A program made the position numbers and the translations under genes. A stretch of DNA of 64,000 bases from Tsukamurella asaccharolytica. Lineage in GTDB: Bacteria > Actinomycetota > Actinomycetes > Mycobacteriales > Mycobacteriaceae. The notes below the pieces were generated by a model. The model had not been told where the DNA came from. It did no database searches and was given only the letters and a program-made list of their open reading frames with translations. The stretch spans positions 62,001 through 126,000 of the forward strand of contig NZ_VIGW01000004.1 of NCBI RefSeq assembly GCF_007858435.1. Direction: 5' to 3'. Positions 54,389 to 60,470 of this stretch are shown here, in pieces; within the stretch, counting starts at the first letter, position 1; each line of letters starts with the position of its first letter.

Positions 54389-54685
54389 ATGTCTGCCATC
54401 TCCCGGGACGAGGTCGCCCACCTGGCGCGCCTGTCGCGCCTCGCCGTCACCGACGAAGAGCTCGACGTCTTCGCCACGCAGCTCGATTCGATCCTCGAGC
54501 ACGTCAAGGTGGTGACCGAGGTCGGCGACGCGGACGTCGCGCCGCTCAGCCTCCCGGAGGGCAACGTGAACGTGAACCGCGCGGACAGCCCCGTCCGGAG
54601 CCTGACGCCGGAGGAGGCGCTCTCGGGCGCCCCGAACCGCGAGGGCGACCGCTTCGCCGTGCCGCGCATCCTGGGGGAGGAGTGA
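54389..54685 (+). CDS. gatC: Asp-tRNA(Asn)/Glu-tRNA(Gln) amidotransferase subunit C
   Basis: The 98-residue small subunit that wraps around GatA in the GatCAB complex forming Gln-tRNA and Asn-tRNA from mischarged precursors. It reads [19 protein letters not shown] and [20 protein letters not shown], the family's helix and linker, ending [16 protein letters not shown] overlap joins it to gatA (GAGTGACC), and so the two are translated together. Confidence 0.94.
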
Positions 54686-56178
54686 CCGTGACCGATCTGC
54701 GTGCATCGAACGAGATCACCGGCGCGAACGCCGCCGACCTGGCCGCGAAGATCGCTTCGGGTGACCTGAGCTCCGTTGAGGTCACCCAGGCGCACCTGGA
54801 CCGGATCGCCGAGGTCGACGGCGAGCTGGGCGCGTTCCTTCACGTCTCGGGCGAGGAGGCCCTCGCGGCCGCCCGCGCCGTCGACGAGGCCCGCGCCCGC
54901 GGCGAGCAGACCGCGTCCGCGCTCGCCGGCGTGCCGCTGGCGCTCAAGGACGTCTTCACCACGACCGACGCGCCCACCACCTGCGGCTCGAAGATCCTCG
55001 AGGGCTGGACGGCGCCGTACGACGCGACCGTCACCGCGAAGCTGCGCGCCGCGGGCATCCCGATCCTCGGCAAGACCAATATGGACGAGTTCGCCATGGG
55101 GTCGTCGACGGAGAACTCCGCCTACGGCGTCACCCGCAACCCGTGGGCGGCCGACCGCACCCCGGGCGGCTCGGGTGGCGGCAGCGCTGCCGCGCTCGCC
55201 TCCTACGAGGCGCCGCTCGCCATCGGTACCGACACCGGTGGCTCCATCCGGCAGCCCGCGTCGCTGACGGCCACCGTCGGCGTGCGGCCGACGTACGGCG
55301 CCGTCTCGCGCTACGGCTTGGTCGCCTGCGCCTCGTCGCTGGACCAGGGCGGGCCGTGCGCGCGCACCGTCCTCGACACCGCGCTCCTGCACGAAGTGAT
55401 CGCTGGGCACGACCCGCGCGATGCCACCTCGCTCGACGCCGCCGTGCCCGGCGTGGTGGCCGCCGCGCGCGCGGGTGCCTCCGGCGACCTGAAGGGTGTC
55501 CGCGTGGGCCTGGTCAAGGAGTTCGGCGCCGACGGCACCGAGGCCGGCGTCCAGGCGTCCTTCGAGAAGGCCGTGCAGCAGCTGCGCGACTTGGGCGCCG
55601 AGACGGTCGAGGTCTCGCTGCCCACGCTGCAGTACTCGCTCGCCGCCTACTACCTGATCCTCCCGTCGGAGGTCTCCTCGAACCTCGCCCGGTTCGACGC
55701 CATGCGCTACGGGCTCCGGACGGGCGACGACGGCACGCACTCGGCGGAGGAGGTCATGGCTCTCACCCGCGAGGCCGGCTTCGGCCCGGAGGTCAAGCGG
55801 CGCATCATGATCGGCACCTACGCGCTGAGCTCCGGCTACTACGACGCCTACTACGGCAGTGCGCAGAAGGTGCGCACCCTGCTCGCGGAGGACTTCGCGC
55901 GCGCCTACGAGCAGGTCGATGTGATCGTCTCGCCCACCACCCCCACCACGGCGTTCACGCTGGGGGAGAAGGTCGGCGATCCGCTGGCGATGTACCTGTT
56001 CGACCTGTTCACGCTGCCGACGAACCTCGCCGGCCACTGCGGCATGTCGGTGCCCTCGGGGCTGTCGGCGGACGACGGGCTCCCCGTCGGCCTGCAGATC
56101 CTGGCGCCCGCGCAGGCGGACGACCGGCTCTACAAGGTCGGCGCCGCGTACGAGGCCGCCCGCGGCCCCGTCGCCTGA
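54682..56178 (+). CDS. gatA: Asp-tRNA(Asn)/Glu-tRNA(Gln) amidotransferase subunit A
   Basis: The 498-residue amidase subunit that generates ammonia from glutamine. The Ser-cisSer-Lys triad is present: Lys89 in [10 protein letters not shown], the cis-Ser in [14 protein letters not shown], and the nucleophile Ser in [25 protein letters not shown] and [19 protein letters not shown] complete the signature. A second in-frame GTG two codons after the annotated start (54688) is an alternative. gatB follows only 5 kb later, behind an accessory insert, while in M. tuberculosis the interval holds only pfkA. Confidence 0.96.
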
Positions 56179-56229
56179 CAGCGCCCTGACCCCGCCCTCC
56201 GCGGCACCACTGGGTTCTTCCCACTTCCC

Positions 56230-56305
56230 GACTTAACAGCGTTAGTCCAGAGGGCTTCCTGCGGAAACGTCTGCACCCGGTGCTAGCTACCTGTCGGTAG
56301 CTGGA
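56230..56305 (+). repeat. Left copy of an imperfect 76-nt inverted repeat flanking the DUF559 gene
   Basis: This segment aligns without gaps to the reverse complement of 57231-57306 with 52 of 76 bases identical. The first 16 bases, GACTTAACAGCGTTAG, are identical in both, and GCTAGCTACC is identical 52 bases further in. A 7-bp stem with TGTC loop (56285-56302) lies at the inner end and includes the gene's stop codon. It occupies most of the gap between gatA and the gene. Confidence 0.7.
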
Positions 56306-57197
56306 AGTCGTGGTCGGCGAGAGCTCGGCGGACGCGGCGAAGGAGGACGTCCGGGCGGTTCGTCAGCGGCCCCGAGGTGACGATGATGAGGTTCCAGCCG
56401 AGGTCCTTCTCGAGCACGTTCCAACGCTCGACGTCGGCGGCGTGTTGCCTCGCGTCGCGATGGTAGGCGCCGTCGTATTCCACGGCGACCTTGTGCTGCT
56501 CGTCGGCGAGGTCGAGGAAGTACTCGCCGTCGAGCACGGGGACCTGCGGGATCATGGTCGTCAGTCCGGCGCGATGGAGCGTCAAGCGGGAGAAGGTCTC
56601 CCACGGCGATTGGGCGCGACCGTCGGCCTCGTCGAGAACGGCCCGGATGCGGGTGCCCCGCCACCACTCGCGTCGCGCGAGCTCGGCCTCGATCTGCGCC
56701 GCGGTCGCCATCGCCGGGCGCGACACCCAGGCCGGACGGTGCGCCGTCGCCGGCCTGCCGAAAACGCGGAGGCACTGGTCCGCGGCGGCGATGCCCTCGT
56801 CGCCGGCGGTGTAGCGAAGGAGGTCCATCGTCGTGCGGAGCGGTGAGGTGCACGGCAGCCCGTAGCGGACGACGATGTCGCCCGCGTCGAATTCGGCGGT
56901 GCGACTGATCACGCCGCGTCGGCGGATCTGCTTCGGCCCGAGAATTTCGACGGACTCCCGGGACTTCGCCATCGTGTGCAGGTGCAGTCGGGCCGCCGTC
57001 CAGCCGCACAGCACGGATCCGGGGTACTGGCGGATCATCGCCGTCGCGAGGTCTCCGACCGCGCCGCCGGTGCTTCCGCGCGGAACCCGGAAGCCGGGTG
57101 TGACGCAGAGGTAGTCCTTCTCCGCCGCATACCGTCCCACGGCGGCGATCAGGTCCGCCGACCGATGCACCTCGCGCTCGAAAGCCCCCATGTTCAT
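56283..57197 (-). CDS. DUF559/endonuclease-fold protein with AbiEi-like N-terminal region
   Basis: A 304-residue protein of unknown function. Residues 1-190 resemble AbiEi-type antitoxin-like proteins (VTPGFRVPRG, SVLCGWTAARLHLH, YGLPCTSPLRTTMDLLRYT); the C-terminal 100 residues look like a DUF559/very-short-patch-repair-like nuclease fold: SPWETFSRLTLHRAGL, DGEYFLDLADEQHKVAVEYD, GAYHRDARQHAADVERWNVL and WNLIIVTSG. The D...VEYDG and following H would fit a PD-(D/E)xK-type site. Base composition appears a little less GC-rich than the neighbours. It is bracketed by an inverted repeat and abuts no partner toxin gene. ATG 57197 is used (MNMGAF; the second ATG is two codons later). Confidence 0.7.
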   Translation of the reverse strand: MNMGAFEREVHRSADLIAAVGRYAAEKDYLCVTPGFRVPRGSTGGAVGDLATAMIRQYPGSVLCGWTAARLHLHTMAKSRESVEILGPKQIRRRGVISRTAEFDAGDIVVRYGLPCTSPLRTTMDLLRYTAGDEGIAAADQCLRVFGRPATAHRPAWVSRPAMATAAQIEAELARREWWRGTRIRAVLDEADGRAQSPWETFSRLTLHRAGLTTMIPQVPVLDGEYFLDLADEQHKVAVEYDGAYHRDARQHAADVERWNVLEKDLGWNLIIVTSGPLTNRPDVLLRRVRRALADHDFQLPTGS

Positions 57198-57230
57198 TGG
57201 ACGCGTGAGCCCGTGTCGTGGTTCCTCTTG

Positions 57231-57306
57231 ATCGGTTACCTGCGGGTAGCTAGCGACCGATGCAGGAGAAGTCCCAGGAGGAGACCTGGGCTAACGCTGT
57301 TAAGTC
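57231..57306 (-). repeat. Right copy of the imperfect 76-nt inverted repeat
   Basis: The reverse complement of this segment matches 56230-56305 at 52 of 76 positions with no gap. A weak 6-bp stem with TGCG loop sits at the inner end at the position of the left hairpin, and the outer end overlaps the TGA of the next gene (57305-57307). An extra hairpin CCCAGG-AGGAGA-CCTGGG (57273-57290) is found only in this copy. Confidence 0.7.
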
Positions 57307-58522
57307 AGATATTTGGGAGTGGTGCCGCTGCTCGCGCGACGAGGTCCGCGACCAGCTCAGATCCCTGCCGCTCGTCGTAGCGGTGCCCCAGGCCGGGCGG
57401 CGGCGCGGTGGCACCCAGCAGGTCGACGGTCGCCTGGACGAACGAGAGCACGGGCAGCCACGGCGGCCGCGGGGTGGCGCGCCCCGAGCCCGACGCGGCC
57501 CGCTCCGGCGGTGCGACCAGCAGCCGCGCCGACCAGATCCCGACCGGATCGGAGGCGTTGAGCTGGGCGGGCCCCGCAAGCGCCACGCCAGCGGGCGTGC
57601 CCACCTGCAGCGTCGCGGCGACGGGGGTGCCGAGCTCGGCCGCGCGCCGCTGCGCCGCGAGCACCCCCACCGTTCCCAGGCTCTGCCCGTACACCCGGAC
57701 CCGGGTCGACGGTGCCCGCCGGTGCAGCTCGTCGATCAGCGCGGCCGTGCTCGCGGCGGCGGCGTCGCGATACAGGACGAACGACTGCCAGCTCGGCATC
57801 TCGGTGTACTGCACCGCCACGATCGCGCTGTCGCCGTGCAGCGACTCCTCCACGCCGCGGACGAAATGCGGATCCACCCAGCCGGATCCGGTGGGCACCG
57901 CGATCACCACCGCCCGCCGCGCGAGGCCGCCCGCGGCGATGAGCCGGTCCACCGCCACCGCGGCGCGCGCGGAAGGGGTGGCGCCGTCGGTCAGGGAGGC
58001 GTACGCCCGCACGCCCGGTGCCGAGGACTCGATACCCGCGAAGCGCTCCGCGTACGACGCGGCCTCCGCCGAGGTCGCCGTTGCGGGCCAGGCGATCCCG
58101 GCCGTCACCGCGACACCGGCCAGCACCGCGACACCGGCCAGCACCGCGACGGCGGCCCGGGCGCGCACGGGCCACAGCGCGCCGCCCGCCAACGGCGCCG
58201 CCATGACGGCACCGGCGAGCGTGGCGAAGGCAACCGGCCCCACCGGTTCCGCACCGGCCGCGACCCGAAGGTGGTTCTGCCACAACACCCACCCCACCAG
58301 CGCCGCCGCCAGCAGGTACATCGCGAGGCGGCCGCCACCGTCGGACGGCTCCCGCCGGCGCACGACCACCCAACCGGCCAGCGCCCCGATGGCGCCGAAC
58401 AGTAGGCTCACCGCGAATTGGACCGCGACGGCGCGCGGCAATTGGTTCGGGGACAGCGCGCACGCCACTCCCACGGCGTAGCCGGTGAGCACCCCGCCGC
58501 GGAGGTGCGGCCGGGCGATCAC
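57305..58522 (-). CDS. Membrane alpha/beta-hydrolase family protein (Abhydrolase_9 type)
   Basis: A 405-residue protein. The N-terminal 140 residues hold about five TM segments (AVQFAVSLLFGAIGALAGWVV, LAMYLLAAALVGWVLW, FATLAGAVMAAPLAGGALW, AVAVLAGVAVLAGVAVTAG), the rest is an alpha/beta hydrolase domain: AVVIAVPTGSGWVDPHFVRG, ESLHGDSAIVAVQYTEMPSW, and the nucleophile elbow VYGQSLGTVGVLA (GxSxG). The actinobacterial family is thought to act on lipids outside or at the membrane. GTG 58522 overlaps the stop of the phospholipase gene as GTGA. Its own stop codon lies within the right inverted repeat. Confidence 0.82.
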   Translation of the reverse strand: MIARPHLRGGVLTGYAVGVACALSPNQLPRAVAVQFAVSLLFGAIGALAGWVVVRRREPSDGGGRLAMYLLAAALVGWVLWQNHLRVAAGAEPVGPVAFATLAGAVMAAPLAGGALWPVRARAAVAVLAGVAVLAGVAVTAGIAWPATATSAEAASYAERFAGIESSAPGVRAYASLTDGATPSARAAVAVDRLIAAGGLARRAVVIAVPTGSGWVDPHFVRGVEESLHGDSAIVAVQYTEMPSWQSFVLYRDAAAASTAALIDELHRRAPSTRVRVYGQSLGTVGVLAAQRRAAELGTPVAATLQVGTPAGVALAGPAQLNASDPVGIWSARLLVAPPERAASGSGRATPRPPWLPVLSFVQATVDLLGATAPPPGLGHRYDERQGSELVADLVARAAAPLPNI

Positions 58523-59082
58523 AGCCGGTCTCCGCCCGTGAGCCAGCTCGTGACGAGCTCGCGTGCGGACTCGGCGCGCGGCGGACCGTCGTGTTGGCGC
58601 CAGGTGTTGGCGCGCACCGCCAGCACCGCCAACCCGGCCACCTCGGTGCACTGGCGGCGCTGCGCCACCGGACGCGCCGCACAGGCTGCGGCCAGTCGGT
58701 CGGCGAAGGCATCGTCGATCCGGAGGCGGGCCCACCCGCCCAGGGGTCGCCCGGCGGCGTCGGCGTGGCGGAGCAGGTCGTAGCCCAGGTCGTGCGCCTT
58801 GCACGGCGCGTCGAAATCCGCGGGCAGCCGCACGACGGACGAGCAATCGCCGTGCGGGTTCACGGCGTAGCCCGGGCCGGCCGCCGCGGCGTACCCCAGG
58901 CCGCGCGGCACCGCGCGGACCTGGGCGGCGGCGTCGAGCGCGGGGTCGGTGACGGCGCGGACCGCGGCCGCGGTGGCGGGGTCGTCGCGCTCGGGGGTGT
59001 CGCCCGCGGCGGCGGGGAGGGAGATCCCGAACGACAGGGGGACGGCGAGTACGGCTGCGGCGGCGAGCATGCGACGGTTCAT
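58519..59082 (-). CDS. Secreted prokaryotic phospholipase A2-like protein
   Basis: A 187-residue exported enzyme of the bacterial PLA2 group (PF09056-type). The signal peptide is MLAAAAVLAVPLSFGISLPA with cleavage near AAAG. The catalytic HD pair lies in APCKAHDLGYDLLRHADA, the same C..HD.GY pattern as in the Streptomyces violaceoruber enzyme, preceded by the calcium-binding-type segment GDCSSVVRLP. Four or more cysteines (GDCSS, APCKAH, AACAAR, RQCTEV) can form two disulfides. It should hydrolyse sn-2 ester bonds of phospholipids. It is coupled to the membrane hydrolase gene by a GTGA overlap and is divergent from a two-component operon. Confidence 0.85.
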   Translation of the reverse strand: MNRRMLAAAAVLAVPLSFGISLPAAAGDTPERDDPATAAAVRAVTDPALDAAAQVRAVPRGLGYAAAAGPGYAVNPHGDCSSVVRLPADFDAPCKAHDLGYDLLRHADAAGRPLGGWARLRIDDAFADRLAAACAARPVAQRRQCTEVAGLAVLAVRANTWRQHDGPPRAESARELVTSWLTGGDRL

Positions 59083-59090
59083 GGACAGCG

Positions 59091-59096
59091 ACGCTA
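59091..59096 (-). promoter_or_regulatory. Putative -10 element of the phospholipase gene
   Basis: On the minus strand TAGCGT ends 8 nt before the ATG at 59082. The mirror-image element for the histidine kinase has the same sequence, so CCTAGCGT(C/T)GC forms an inverted repeat across the intergenic region. Confidence 0.45.
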
Positions 59097-59181
59097 GGAA
59101 CGCCGGACCGGCCTCCGGATCGGCTGCGCGAGGGGTTCGATATCACCCGGAAGTATGAGGACTCCGAGCGTCCTCTGGCCC

Positions 59182-59187
59182 TAGCGT
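59182..59187 (+). promoter_or_regulatory. Putative -10 element (leaderless) of the histidine kinase gene
   Basis: TAGCGT ends 8 nt before the ATG at 59196. A 6-bp inverted repeat GAGGAC/GTCCTC (59157-59175) lies just upstream and could bind the phosphorylated regulator. Confidence 0.45.
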
Positions 59188-59195
59188 TGCCTGCC

Positions 59196-60470
59196 ATGAG
59201 GACGACCACGAAGAGGATCGAGCGGTTCGGACGGGCCACGGTGCGCGCAGGCCGCTACCTGGACCGGCAGAGCGAGCTGCACATCAAGGCCCCGGACGGG
59301 GCGCTGCACGCGACGCCGCTCGGGACTTTCCTGTCCCGGAAGATCAACTGGCTGTTCCTGCTGCTCGCGCTCATCATGTGGGCTGTCGCCTGGCCCACTC
59401 TCAACGAGCAGTTCGCGGTGCCGGCGGCGCTGCTCCCGATCATCAGCGGCCTCTCCGTCCTCCCCATCGCCATCGCCTGGTCCCACCCGCGCGCCGCGTG
59501 GGGGATCGTCGCCGCGACGGCCGCCGTCTTCCCGTTGCTCTGGTTCGACGCGAAACAGGACTGGCAGTGGAACTGGCAGGTCTCGCTGATCCTGGCGATG
59601 CTCATCACCAGCTGGATCGCCTTCCTCAAATGTTCGCCGCTCGACGCGATCGTCATCGCCGCGGCCTCGTCCGTGCTGTTCTGGATCAACGCGCAGGACG
59701 GCACCGGCGGCGGCTGGGTCGCGGGAATCATGGTCTCGCTCGTGATCATCCTGCTGCTGCGCCTGGCGCTGCAGTCCCGCAACCGGCTCGAGGCGCAGAC
59801 CGAGGTCAGTGAGCTCGAGCGGGGCCGCCGCGCCATCCTGGAGGAGCGCACCCGCATCGCCCGCGACCTGCACGACATCGTCGCGCACCGGATGTCGCTC
59901 GTCGTGGTCCAGGCCCAGACCGCCCAGTACCGCGTGCCCGACGTGTCCGAGCGGGCCCGCGCCGAGTTCGACGGGATCGCCGTCTCCGCCCGCGAGGCCC
60001 TCAACGAGGTCCGCGCCCTGCTCGGCGTACTGCGGCTCGACGACGCCTCGGCCGATCTCGCCCCGGCGCCCGGCCTCGGCGGCGTCGACGAGCTGATCGA
60101 CGGCGCCCGCGCGGCGGGGGTCGTCGTCGACTATCTGCCGCTGCCCGACCCGACCGCGATCGGGGAGAGCACCGCGCTCGTCGCGTACCGCATCGTGCAG
60201 GAGTCCATCGCGAACGCGACCCGGCACGCGCAGGGCGCCGCGATCACCGTCGCCCTCACGCTCGACACGGGAACGCTCCACCTGAGCATCGAGAACGGCC
60301 CGCGGACCTCCGACGCCGACCTCGGCGGCCCCGGTCTGGGGCAGGGCATCCCCGGCATGGCTAAGCGGGCGCGCACCGTCGGCGGCTCCCTGTCGGCGAC
60401 GCCGACCGCGGGCGGGGGCTTCGCGGTCCGCGCCGCGCTCCCGGCCCGCCCCGACGGCGCCACCGCCTAG
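59196..60470 (+). CDS. Sensor histidine kinase, NarL-partner (HisKA_3) type
   Basis: A 424-residue membrane kinase. After a cytoplasmic N-terminus there are about six TM segments between residues 45 and 190 (WLFLLLALIMWAVAWP, ALLPIISGLSVLPIAIAW, WGIVAATAAVFPLLWF, SLILAMLITSWIAFL, AIVIAAASSVLFWI, VAGIMVSLVIILLLRLAL). A short coiled segment leads to the phospho-acceptor histidine in RIARDLHDIVAHRMSLVVVQ. The ATPase domain has the N-box IVQESIANATRHAQG and G-boxes GLGQGIPGMAKRARTVGG. ATG 59196 is used; a TTG three codons earlier is in frame. The response regulator follows after 10 bp. Confidence 0.93.
   Translation: MRTTTKRIERFGRATVRAGRYLDRQSELHIKAPDGALHATPLGTFLSRKINWLFLLLALIMWAVAWPTLNEQFAVPAALLPIISGLSVLPIAIAWSHPRAAWGIVAATAAVFPLLWFDAKQDWQWNWQVSLILAMLITSWIAFLKCSPLDAIVIAAASSVLFWINAQDGTGGGWVAGIMVSLVIILLLRLALQSRNRLEAQTEVSELERGRRAILEERTRIARDLHDIVAHRMSLVVVQAQTAQYRVPDVSERARAEFDGIAVSAREALNEVRALLGVLRLDDASADLAPAPGLGGVDELIDGARAAGVVVDYLPLPDPTAIGESTALVAYRIVQESIANATRHAQGAAITVALTLDTGTLHLSIENGPRTSDADLGGPGLGQGIPGMAKRARTVGGSLSATPTAGGGFAVRAALPARPDGATA

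What the first reader, a model, noticed from the sequence alone, without database searches (positions are those of the whole stretch)
56230..57306. Nuclease-fold (DUF559) gene bracketed by an ungapped 76-nt imperfect inverted repeat: candidate minimal mobile or selfish cassette
Seen directly: 56230-56305 and the reverse complement of 57231-57306 match at 52 of 76 bases with no gap. Outermost 16 bases are identical, a second identical 10-base block sits at the same distance (52 nt) in both, and both inner ends form a small hairpin. The enclosed DNA is one gene, whose C-terminal domain looks like a PD-(D/E)xK/VSR-type nuclease fold, the fold also used by the TnsA end-cleaving transposition protein. 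The left hairpin contains the stop codon of the gene; the right outer end coincides with the stop codon of the neighbour, as if inserted precisely downstream of it. The cassette lies in the gatCA-gatB interval. Inference: a one-gene element whose ends are recognised by its own nuclease-like product. Alternative: the block CTAACGCTGTTAAG is a near-palindrome typical of TetR operators, and the repeats may be regulatory.
Basis: partly seen in the sequence, partly recalled or inferred. Interest (0 to 1): 0.75.

Follow-up and report, generated by a model that had tools for sequence, protein, structure and literature searches.

The report
Nuclease gene bracketed by its palindromes
A bacterial nuclease gene is framed by two copies of a short palindromic repeat that is also scattered through the genome, and the arms of such palindromes change in step with the nuclease from species to species, which points to an undescribed partnership between a repair-type nuclease and repeated DNA.

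The parts
56230..56305 (+). left bracketing unit: outer 16-mer GACTTAACAGCGTTAG, central part with CCAG..CTG, inner GCTAGCTACC hairpin
57231..57306 (-). right bracketing unit, inverted copy of the left one (52 of 76 ungapped)
56230..56245 (+). outer 16-mer, left arm; 13 copies at up to 2 mismatches in the own genome
57291..57306 (-). outer 16-mer, right arm
56283..57197 (-). AbiEi-like plus DUF559/EDxHD nuclease gene, 304 aa
56304..56612 (-). part encoding the nuclease domain, residues about 196-298; E200, D229 and D255 invariant in 52 sequences, E240, D242 and H246 at least 90%
56622..57176 (-). part encoding the AbiEi-antitoxin-like domain, residues about 8-192
54682..56178 (+). gatA, left neighbour (target-site context)
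57305..59239 (-). ORF of the alpha/beta-hydrolase, right neighbour; its stop codon overlaps the right end of the unit (start codon uncertain; product name from the annotated relative)

Best explanation
The segment is one member of a large family of nuclease-palindrome units of Actinobacteria, chiefly Mycobacteriales. A single protein, an AbiEi-antitoxin-like DNA-binding domain fused to a Vsr/EDxHD nuclease, is bracketed by two copies of a family-specific palindromic repeat (bracketing unit here 76 nt, solo palindromes 59-63 bp in Tsukamurella) that is also scattered as solo copies between genes. Most likely working: the protein binds the two arms as a dimer and nicks or cuts at the centre, so that the palindrome is its cognate target. 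The pair is an ancient, mostly vertically inherited, partly domesticated selfish element that works like RAYT with its REPINs: the nuclease gene stays nearly single-copy, the palindromes multiply or persist with it, and their arms follow the specificity of the resident nuclease. Shown here: bracketing, dispersal, presence/absence at orthologous sites, correlation of copy number with the gene, arm co-evolution in one family, predicted fold and conserved active-site residues. Inferred: binding, cleavage, and that the nuclease causes spread or upkeep of the palindromes.
For: Bracketing in 57 of 79 loci (19 of 23 Tsukamurella, 38 of 56 others; 45 of 79 above 45 bits) against 1 of 148 shifted windows and 6 of 300 cross-locus pairs. 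About 20 arm families; 15 of 20 tested are palindromic against shuffles. 16-mer in 12 of 16 genus genomes and 0 of 45 others. Half-sites, gene present v absent: family 1 13,13,4,6,16,12,15,17 v 0,0,0,0,1,6,2,3; family 2 21,15,13,8,5,5 v 8,10,6,6 and six zeros; family 3 39,33,32,30,30,27,13 v 23,16,10,4 and five zeros (gene presence); p 0.0007, 0.013, 0.0009, and 0.001, 0.033, 0.001 after taking off the copies beside the gene. gatA site: no element in six species, solo in G013, cassette in others. Family 3 arms: distance 0.153 same species/different site, 0.291 different species/same site, 0.317 different/different; label shuffles within sites mean 0.268, lowest 0.224 in 300. The leading arm of G001, G006 and G010 is the arm beside its own gene, or one base off. 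Fold and active site. I-Bth0305I dimerises on a target of nearly 60 bp (PMC3943268, passages).
Against: No target-site duplication was seen and no recent copy: all four solos of the own genome are shared with G005. Centre orientation stays with the site in 61 pairs, flipped in 9, undetermined in 11, so whole palindromes are not being re-inserted; in-place selection explains this as well as drive. Solos persist in gene-less genomes: family 3 in G004, G012, G002 and G013, family 1 intact in gene-less G003, G011 and G014. 22 of 79 loci show no repeat above threshold, and a few matches are C-rich stretches that may not be elements (L172, L179). Most similar gene pairs are syntenic. Copy-number tests treat related species as independent, and family 2 is weak once bracketing copies are taken off. 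In G000 most family 3 solos match the arms beside a frameshifted gene copy. A centre shared across families is not significant (8 of 23 v shuffle mean 3.2, maximum 9; best 9-mer reached in 19 of 300 shuffles).
Confidence: 0.6

Rival explanations
1. A DNA-binding regulator or chromosome-structure protein with a regulon of operator-like palindromes. The nuclease domain is secondary, the sites are held by selection and co-evolve with the protein, and nothing moves.
For: Arms co-evolve in place while the centre keeps its site orientation; arms of several families hold their own dyads (by eye); AbiEi-like N-terminal domain; repeats lie at both ends of the gene.
Against: Family 1 solos sit mainly between convergent genes (23 of 38) and rarely between divergent ones (4 of 38); empty, solo and cassette states at the same site; nuclease residues conserved.
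Confidence: 0.25
2. A free-standing homing endonuclease whose target is the palindrome. It cuts palindrome alleles without the gene and the cassette is copied in by repair, so solo and cassette are unoccupied and occupied states.
For: Nuclease fold nearest I-Bth0305I, a homing endonuclease, with a target of nearly 60 bp; solo in G013 and cassette in G005, G009 and G010 at the same gatA/CMD site.
Against: Bracketing palindromes of several families look intact and would themselves be cut (by eye); copies outside the cassette are commoner, not rarer, where the gene is present. Whether family 2 or 3 cassette sites hold solos in other species was not examined.
Confidence: 0.25
3. A miniature inverted-repeat element with passenger gene, moved by an unrelated transposase.
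For: Inverted ends, short solo copies, insertion polymorphism.
Against: About 20 unrelated arm families bracket the same protein family. In the 46 paired family 1 elements the inside is 62-63 bp or the nuclease gene. Single units and other genomes were not searched for a transposase with these ends.
Confidence: 0.06
4. Ordinary bidirectional transcription terminators that happen to lie around the gene.
For: Intergenic, hairpin-forming, mostly between convergent genes.
Against: Sequence families specific to the gene subfamily and to the species; control windows lack them; 0 of 45 genomes outside the genus hold the family 1 arm.
Confidence: 0.04

Closest known systems
RAYT (TnpA-REP) and REPINs
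   Same: Nearly single-copy, mostly vertically inherited gene of a DNA-cutting enzyme, flanked by a palindromic repeat that is dispersed as inverted pairs forming hairpins; more repeats where the gene is present (PMC3116915 and PMC8049555, passages).
   Different: The protein is an AbiEi-Vsr/EDxHD nuclease, not a Y1 transposase; tens, not hundreds, of copies; in the family tested the arms co-evolve in place at fixed sites.
EDxHD homing endonucleases (I-Bth0305I) and Vsr
   Different: Fused to an AbiEi-like domain; free-standing and intergenic, not in an intron or intein; dispersed palindromic partners.
AbiE type IV toxin-antitoxin (AbiEi)
   Different: No partner gene inside the unit; a nuclease domain instead.
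Mobile insertion cassettes / MITEs
   Same: Short inverted ends, passenger gene, solo copies.
   Different: No cognate transposase or target duplication seen; ends diversify together with the enclosed gene.
TnsA of Tn7
   Same: Restriction-endonuclease-like fold.

Membership tests
RAYT/REPIN | Y1 HUH tyrosine transposase | tested here: not met
   AbiEi-like domain plus Vsr/EDxHD fold
RAYT/REPIN | gene flanked by a palindromic repeat that is dispersed in the same genome as inverted pairs | tested here: met
RAYT/REPIN | repeat number higher with the gene | tested here: met
   three families, p 0.001, 0.033, 0.001 without the bracketing copies, not corrected for phylogeny
RAYT/REPIN | repeat mobilised by the protein | not testable with these tools
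   needs experiment
EDxHD homing endonuclease | EDxHD catalytic fold and residues | tested here: met
EDxHD homing endonuclease | encoded in an intron, intein or split gene | tested here: not met
   free-standing between gatA and the hydrolase gene
EDxHD homing endonuclease | homing into a cognate allele | not testable with these tools
   needs experiment; solo and cassette at the same site in different species is compatible
AbiE toxin-antitoxin | adjacent AbiEii nucleotidyltransferase gene | tested here: not met
   one gene between the repeats; neighbours gatA and hydrolase here, gatA and CMD in the annotated relative
MITE / insertion cassette | target-site duplication and cognate transposase | tested here: inconclusive
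   none seen, but congeners are too diverged for exact junctions and no transposase search was made
Tn7 TnsA | TnsA relationship | tested here: inconclusive

The most novel reading that the evidence does not exclude
A second, independently evolved counterpart of RAYT-REPIN: AbiEi-EDxHD nucleases of Mycobacteriales maintain and spread their own families of about 60-bp extragenic palindromes, and the palindrome arms are rewritten genome-wide whenever the nuclease changes specificity (a Vsr-like palindrome-correcting drive), while palindrome centres stay in place.
Probability: 0.4. Interest if true: 0.93.

Novelty: categorically new. Interest (0 to 1): 0.82.

Why it matters
To my knowledge (recalled) dispersed palindromes with their own dedicated enzyme are known only for Y1 transposases. 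A second protein fold with about 20 palindrome families would show that enzyme-palindrome partnership is a recurrent way for DNA to persist in bacterial genomes. It would also give a natural catalogue of protein-target pairs (arm sequence against protein sequence) from which the recognition rules of a long-target nuclease could be read, and it makes testable whether a nuclease can drive co-evolution of its sites.

Tried and rejected
Insertion into hairpin loops of terminators: left and right flanks pair better than shifted windows (median -39.95 v -34.6; 14 of 46 beyond their 5% tail) but no better than cross-locus pairs (-39.9). What remains is a pyrimidine-rich left and purine-rich right flank.

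A centre motif shared by all families: not significant (8 of 23, shuffle mean 3.24, maximum 9; 7- and 8-mers not, 9-mer reached in 19 of 300). Within family 3 the centre is strongly conserved.

Whole-element re-insertion as cause of the species-specific arms: centre orientation keeps the site (61 same, 9 flipped, 11 undetermined). Centre distance is about equal within sites and within species (0.279 and 0.285; different/different 0.333), so the centre sequence alone does not decide.

Horizontal transfer to Kitasatospora (L163): its outer flanks match Williamsia over about 2.7 kb upstream, so a mislabelled genome is likelier.

A second cassette type with other cargo at L104 and L082: in L104 the enclosed gene reads like an ordinary hydratase-type gene between a unit and a solo (my reading).

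Rfam: no match in 1701 bases up to E 1. NCBIfam: none. Phage records: 1 weak match in 50,697; plasmid records: 7 of 72,556, three of them from one Tsukamurella strain. Literature: 10 searches of the held open-access library gave no description among the papers listed; one search listed 10 of 108, 10 of 618, 12 of 18. Of four papers passages were seen, of the others listings only; subscription papers are mostly not held.

Rows dropped: L137 (contig edge); L055 and L074; 9 of 72 elements lacking one exact arm; two 62-bp solos from the pair table; repeats shorter than 45 or longer than 100 bases. The 21 families count family 1 twice (L131, L135). The list was cut short, so arm types are fully known for G000, G001, G002, G004, G006 and G010 and by one element each for G003 and G015. 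Copy counts included the copies beside the gene; one search takes them off (for G003 and G015 four were assumed).

Full report
Observation. The two 76-base stretches match at 52 of 76. No other inverted pair in the 64-kb window within 1.2 kb reaches 50 of 76. The outer 16-mer is found 13 times in the own genome at up to 2 mismatches (reversed control 0) and, at one mismatch, in 12 of 16 genomes of the genus but 0 of 45 other genomes searched.

What the repeats are. The copies take three forms: pairs of 16-mers facing each other 63 bp apart, that is a solo palindrome; single 76-base units like the ends of the cassette; and the cassette, two units around the gene. Sixty-four family 1 elements outside the cassettes, from 12 genomes, fall in 20 genomic sites. 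Of 38 solos, 23 lie between convergent genes, 9 between tandem, 4 between divergent genes, 1 inside a called gene, 1 undetermined (gene calls by GC frame).

Generality. In the genus, 31 of 33 homologous loci examined (of 35 in hand) show an upstream-downstream repeat of at least 32 bits; the two others, L018 and L020, are halves of broken copies. With 79 named loci (of 80) from Tsukamurella, Williamsia, Dietzia, Gordonia, Skermania, Nocardia, Mycobacterium and others, 57 exceed 35 bits in the better of inverted and direct comparison (inverted 40, direct 36), against 1 of 148 shifted windows and 6 of 300 cross-locus pairs treated alike. The repeats form about 20 families with no shared arm 8-mer (21 by the rule, of which two are family 1); 15 of 20 tested are palindromic at shuffle fraction below 0.01. 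Gene pairs at 70% identity or more always share the repeat (39 of 39 pairs), those at 20-50% in about 1% or fewer; below 70% the correlation is weak (Spearman 0.11, reached in 1 of 500 permutations). Most of the similar pairs are syntenic, so only non-syntenic pairs speak for movement: L135 against L131-L134, and L165 against L198 and L207, share repeats at unrelated places; three further non-syntenic sets share shorter arm matches by eye only. In M. angelicum the centre of the gene's repeat occurs at 7 places, two of them beside the gene; over nine genomes 19 centre matches were found in 7, of which by eye 17 have the same arms.

Presence and absence. The order gatA, CMD (carboxymuconolactone decarboxylase), rrf2, hydrolase without element at gatA is seen in G002, G003, G004, G006, G008 and G011, and for five of these also without element between rrf2 and hydrolase. 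The cassette lies between gatA and CMD in G005, G009, G010 and T. tyrosinosolvens NCTC13231, and between rrf2 and hydrolase in G015; G013 has only a 63-bp solo between gatA and CMD, and its cassette lies elsewhere. In the window's species, G001 and G012 the cassette stands directly between gatA and hydrolase and CMD plus rrf2 are gone; in G001 the cassette is inverted. Recombination between elements at the two neighbouring sites would explain this loss (inference). At the place of the G013 cassette, five species carry a solo of another family (family 3) and seven nothing, of 13 genomes matched. At a third site 14 of 16 species hold a palindrome. It is altered in gene-less G004, G002 and G006, in G004 with matching changes in both arms; but it is intact in gene-less G003, G011 and G014, and partly altered in G015 and G009, which have the gene.

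Copy number and gene. In three families genomes with the cognate gene hold more half-sites (one-sided p 0.0007, 0.013, 0.0009). Part of that is trivial, because the gene brings its bracketing copies; without them p is 0.001, 0.033 and 0.001. Species are treated as independent. Gene presence was assigned from the repeats beside each gene.

Co-evolution. Family 3 was read at 25 sites in six genomes, with one element each from two more. In G001 26 of 34 arms read ACCGTTATGG, in G010 8 of 10 read AC(C/T)GTTA(C/T)CG, in G000 and G006 GACGTTCTGG leads (6 of 24 and 7 of 26) with near variants; the arms beside the gene are the same or one base off in G001, G010 and G006. G000 has two genes with two arm types, one beside a frameshifted copy, and solos of both types. 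Arm distance is 0.153 within species between sites, but 0.291 between species at the same site (0.317 for neither), though the DNA around those sites is 82-91% identical. The two arms of one element differ by 0.081 on average. The centre keeps the orientation of the site in 61 of 70 scored pairs (pairs are not independent). So arms are changed in place, in both halves, towards a species type that is the type beside the nuclease gene. This is the strongest evidence for functional coupling, and it does not tell selection from drive.

Mechanism. I-Bth0305I dimerises on a target of nearly 60 bp (PMC3943268, passages), the size of these palindromes. I therefore take the palindrome as the cognate dimer target, arms read by the AbiEi-like half and the centre by the nuclease (inferred). 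How new copies arise is open; the low turnover and nearly single-copy gene resemble RAYT and REPINs (PMC3116915 and PMC8049555, passages), but the protein is unrelated and the sites stay put. Rivals are a co-evolving regulon and a homing endonuclease; both share the binding step and differ in what follows.

Novelty. DUF559 with inverted repeat, REPIN with Actinobacteria, and a six-term combination gave no paper; the other searches listed none about this, some lists being capped. [quoted passage not shown] The library lacks most subscription journals, so the novelty claim holds only for what was searched. The rating rests on failing the Y1 transposase test while working like that system.

Noticed in passing
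56179-57306: CMD and rrf2 genes that lie between gatA and the hydrolase gene in most congeners examined are missing in the window's species, G001 and G012, as if lost by recombination between two elements.
   Followed up: partly
L226 and L212: In G014 the gatA/CMD site holds element ends around what reads like a decayed IS110-type transposase (my reading of the translation); no nuclease gene was found there.
   Followed up: partly
L279:1201-1263, L280:1201-1263, L281:1201-1263: Annotated neighbouring genes end inside or at the edge of solo palindromes, which supply all or part of their stop codons; same at 57305-57307 of the window.
   Followed up: no
L012, L081, L109, L129: Single 76-base units can be read in one frame as a similar peptide, in most with a Cys-X2-Cys pair (by eye); L081 was placed inside a called gene.
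   Followed up: no
57195-57215 and the upstream flanks of L050, L052, L062, L063: GTGCGTCCAATG-like DNA directly before the ATG recurs even in distant paralogues, so the true start or a promoter element may lie there.
   Followed up: no
L163, L137, L138, L278: Probably mislabelled records: a Kitasatospora arboriphila contig syntenic with Williamsia, an Acidobacteriaceae record that groups with Tsukamurella, and an NCTC13231 plasmid record that holds gatA and gatC.
   Followed up: partly
L364: In the own genome a frameshifted nuclease copy keeps two flanking palindromes identical over 59 of 59 bases.
   Followed up: no
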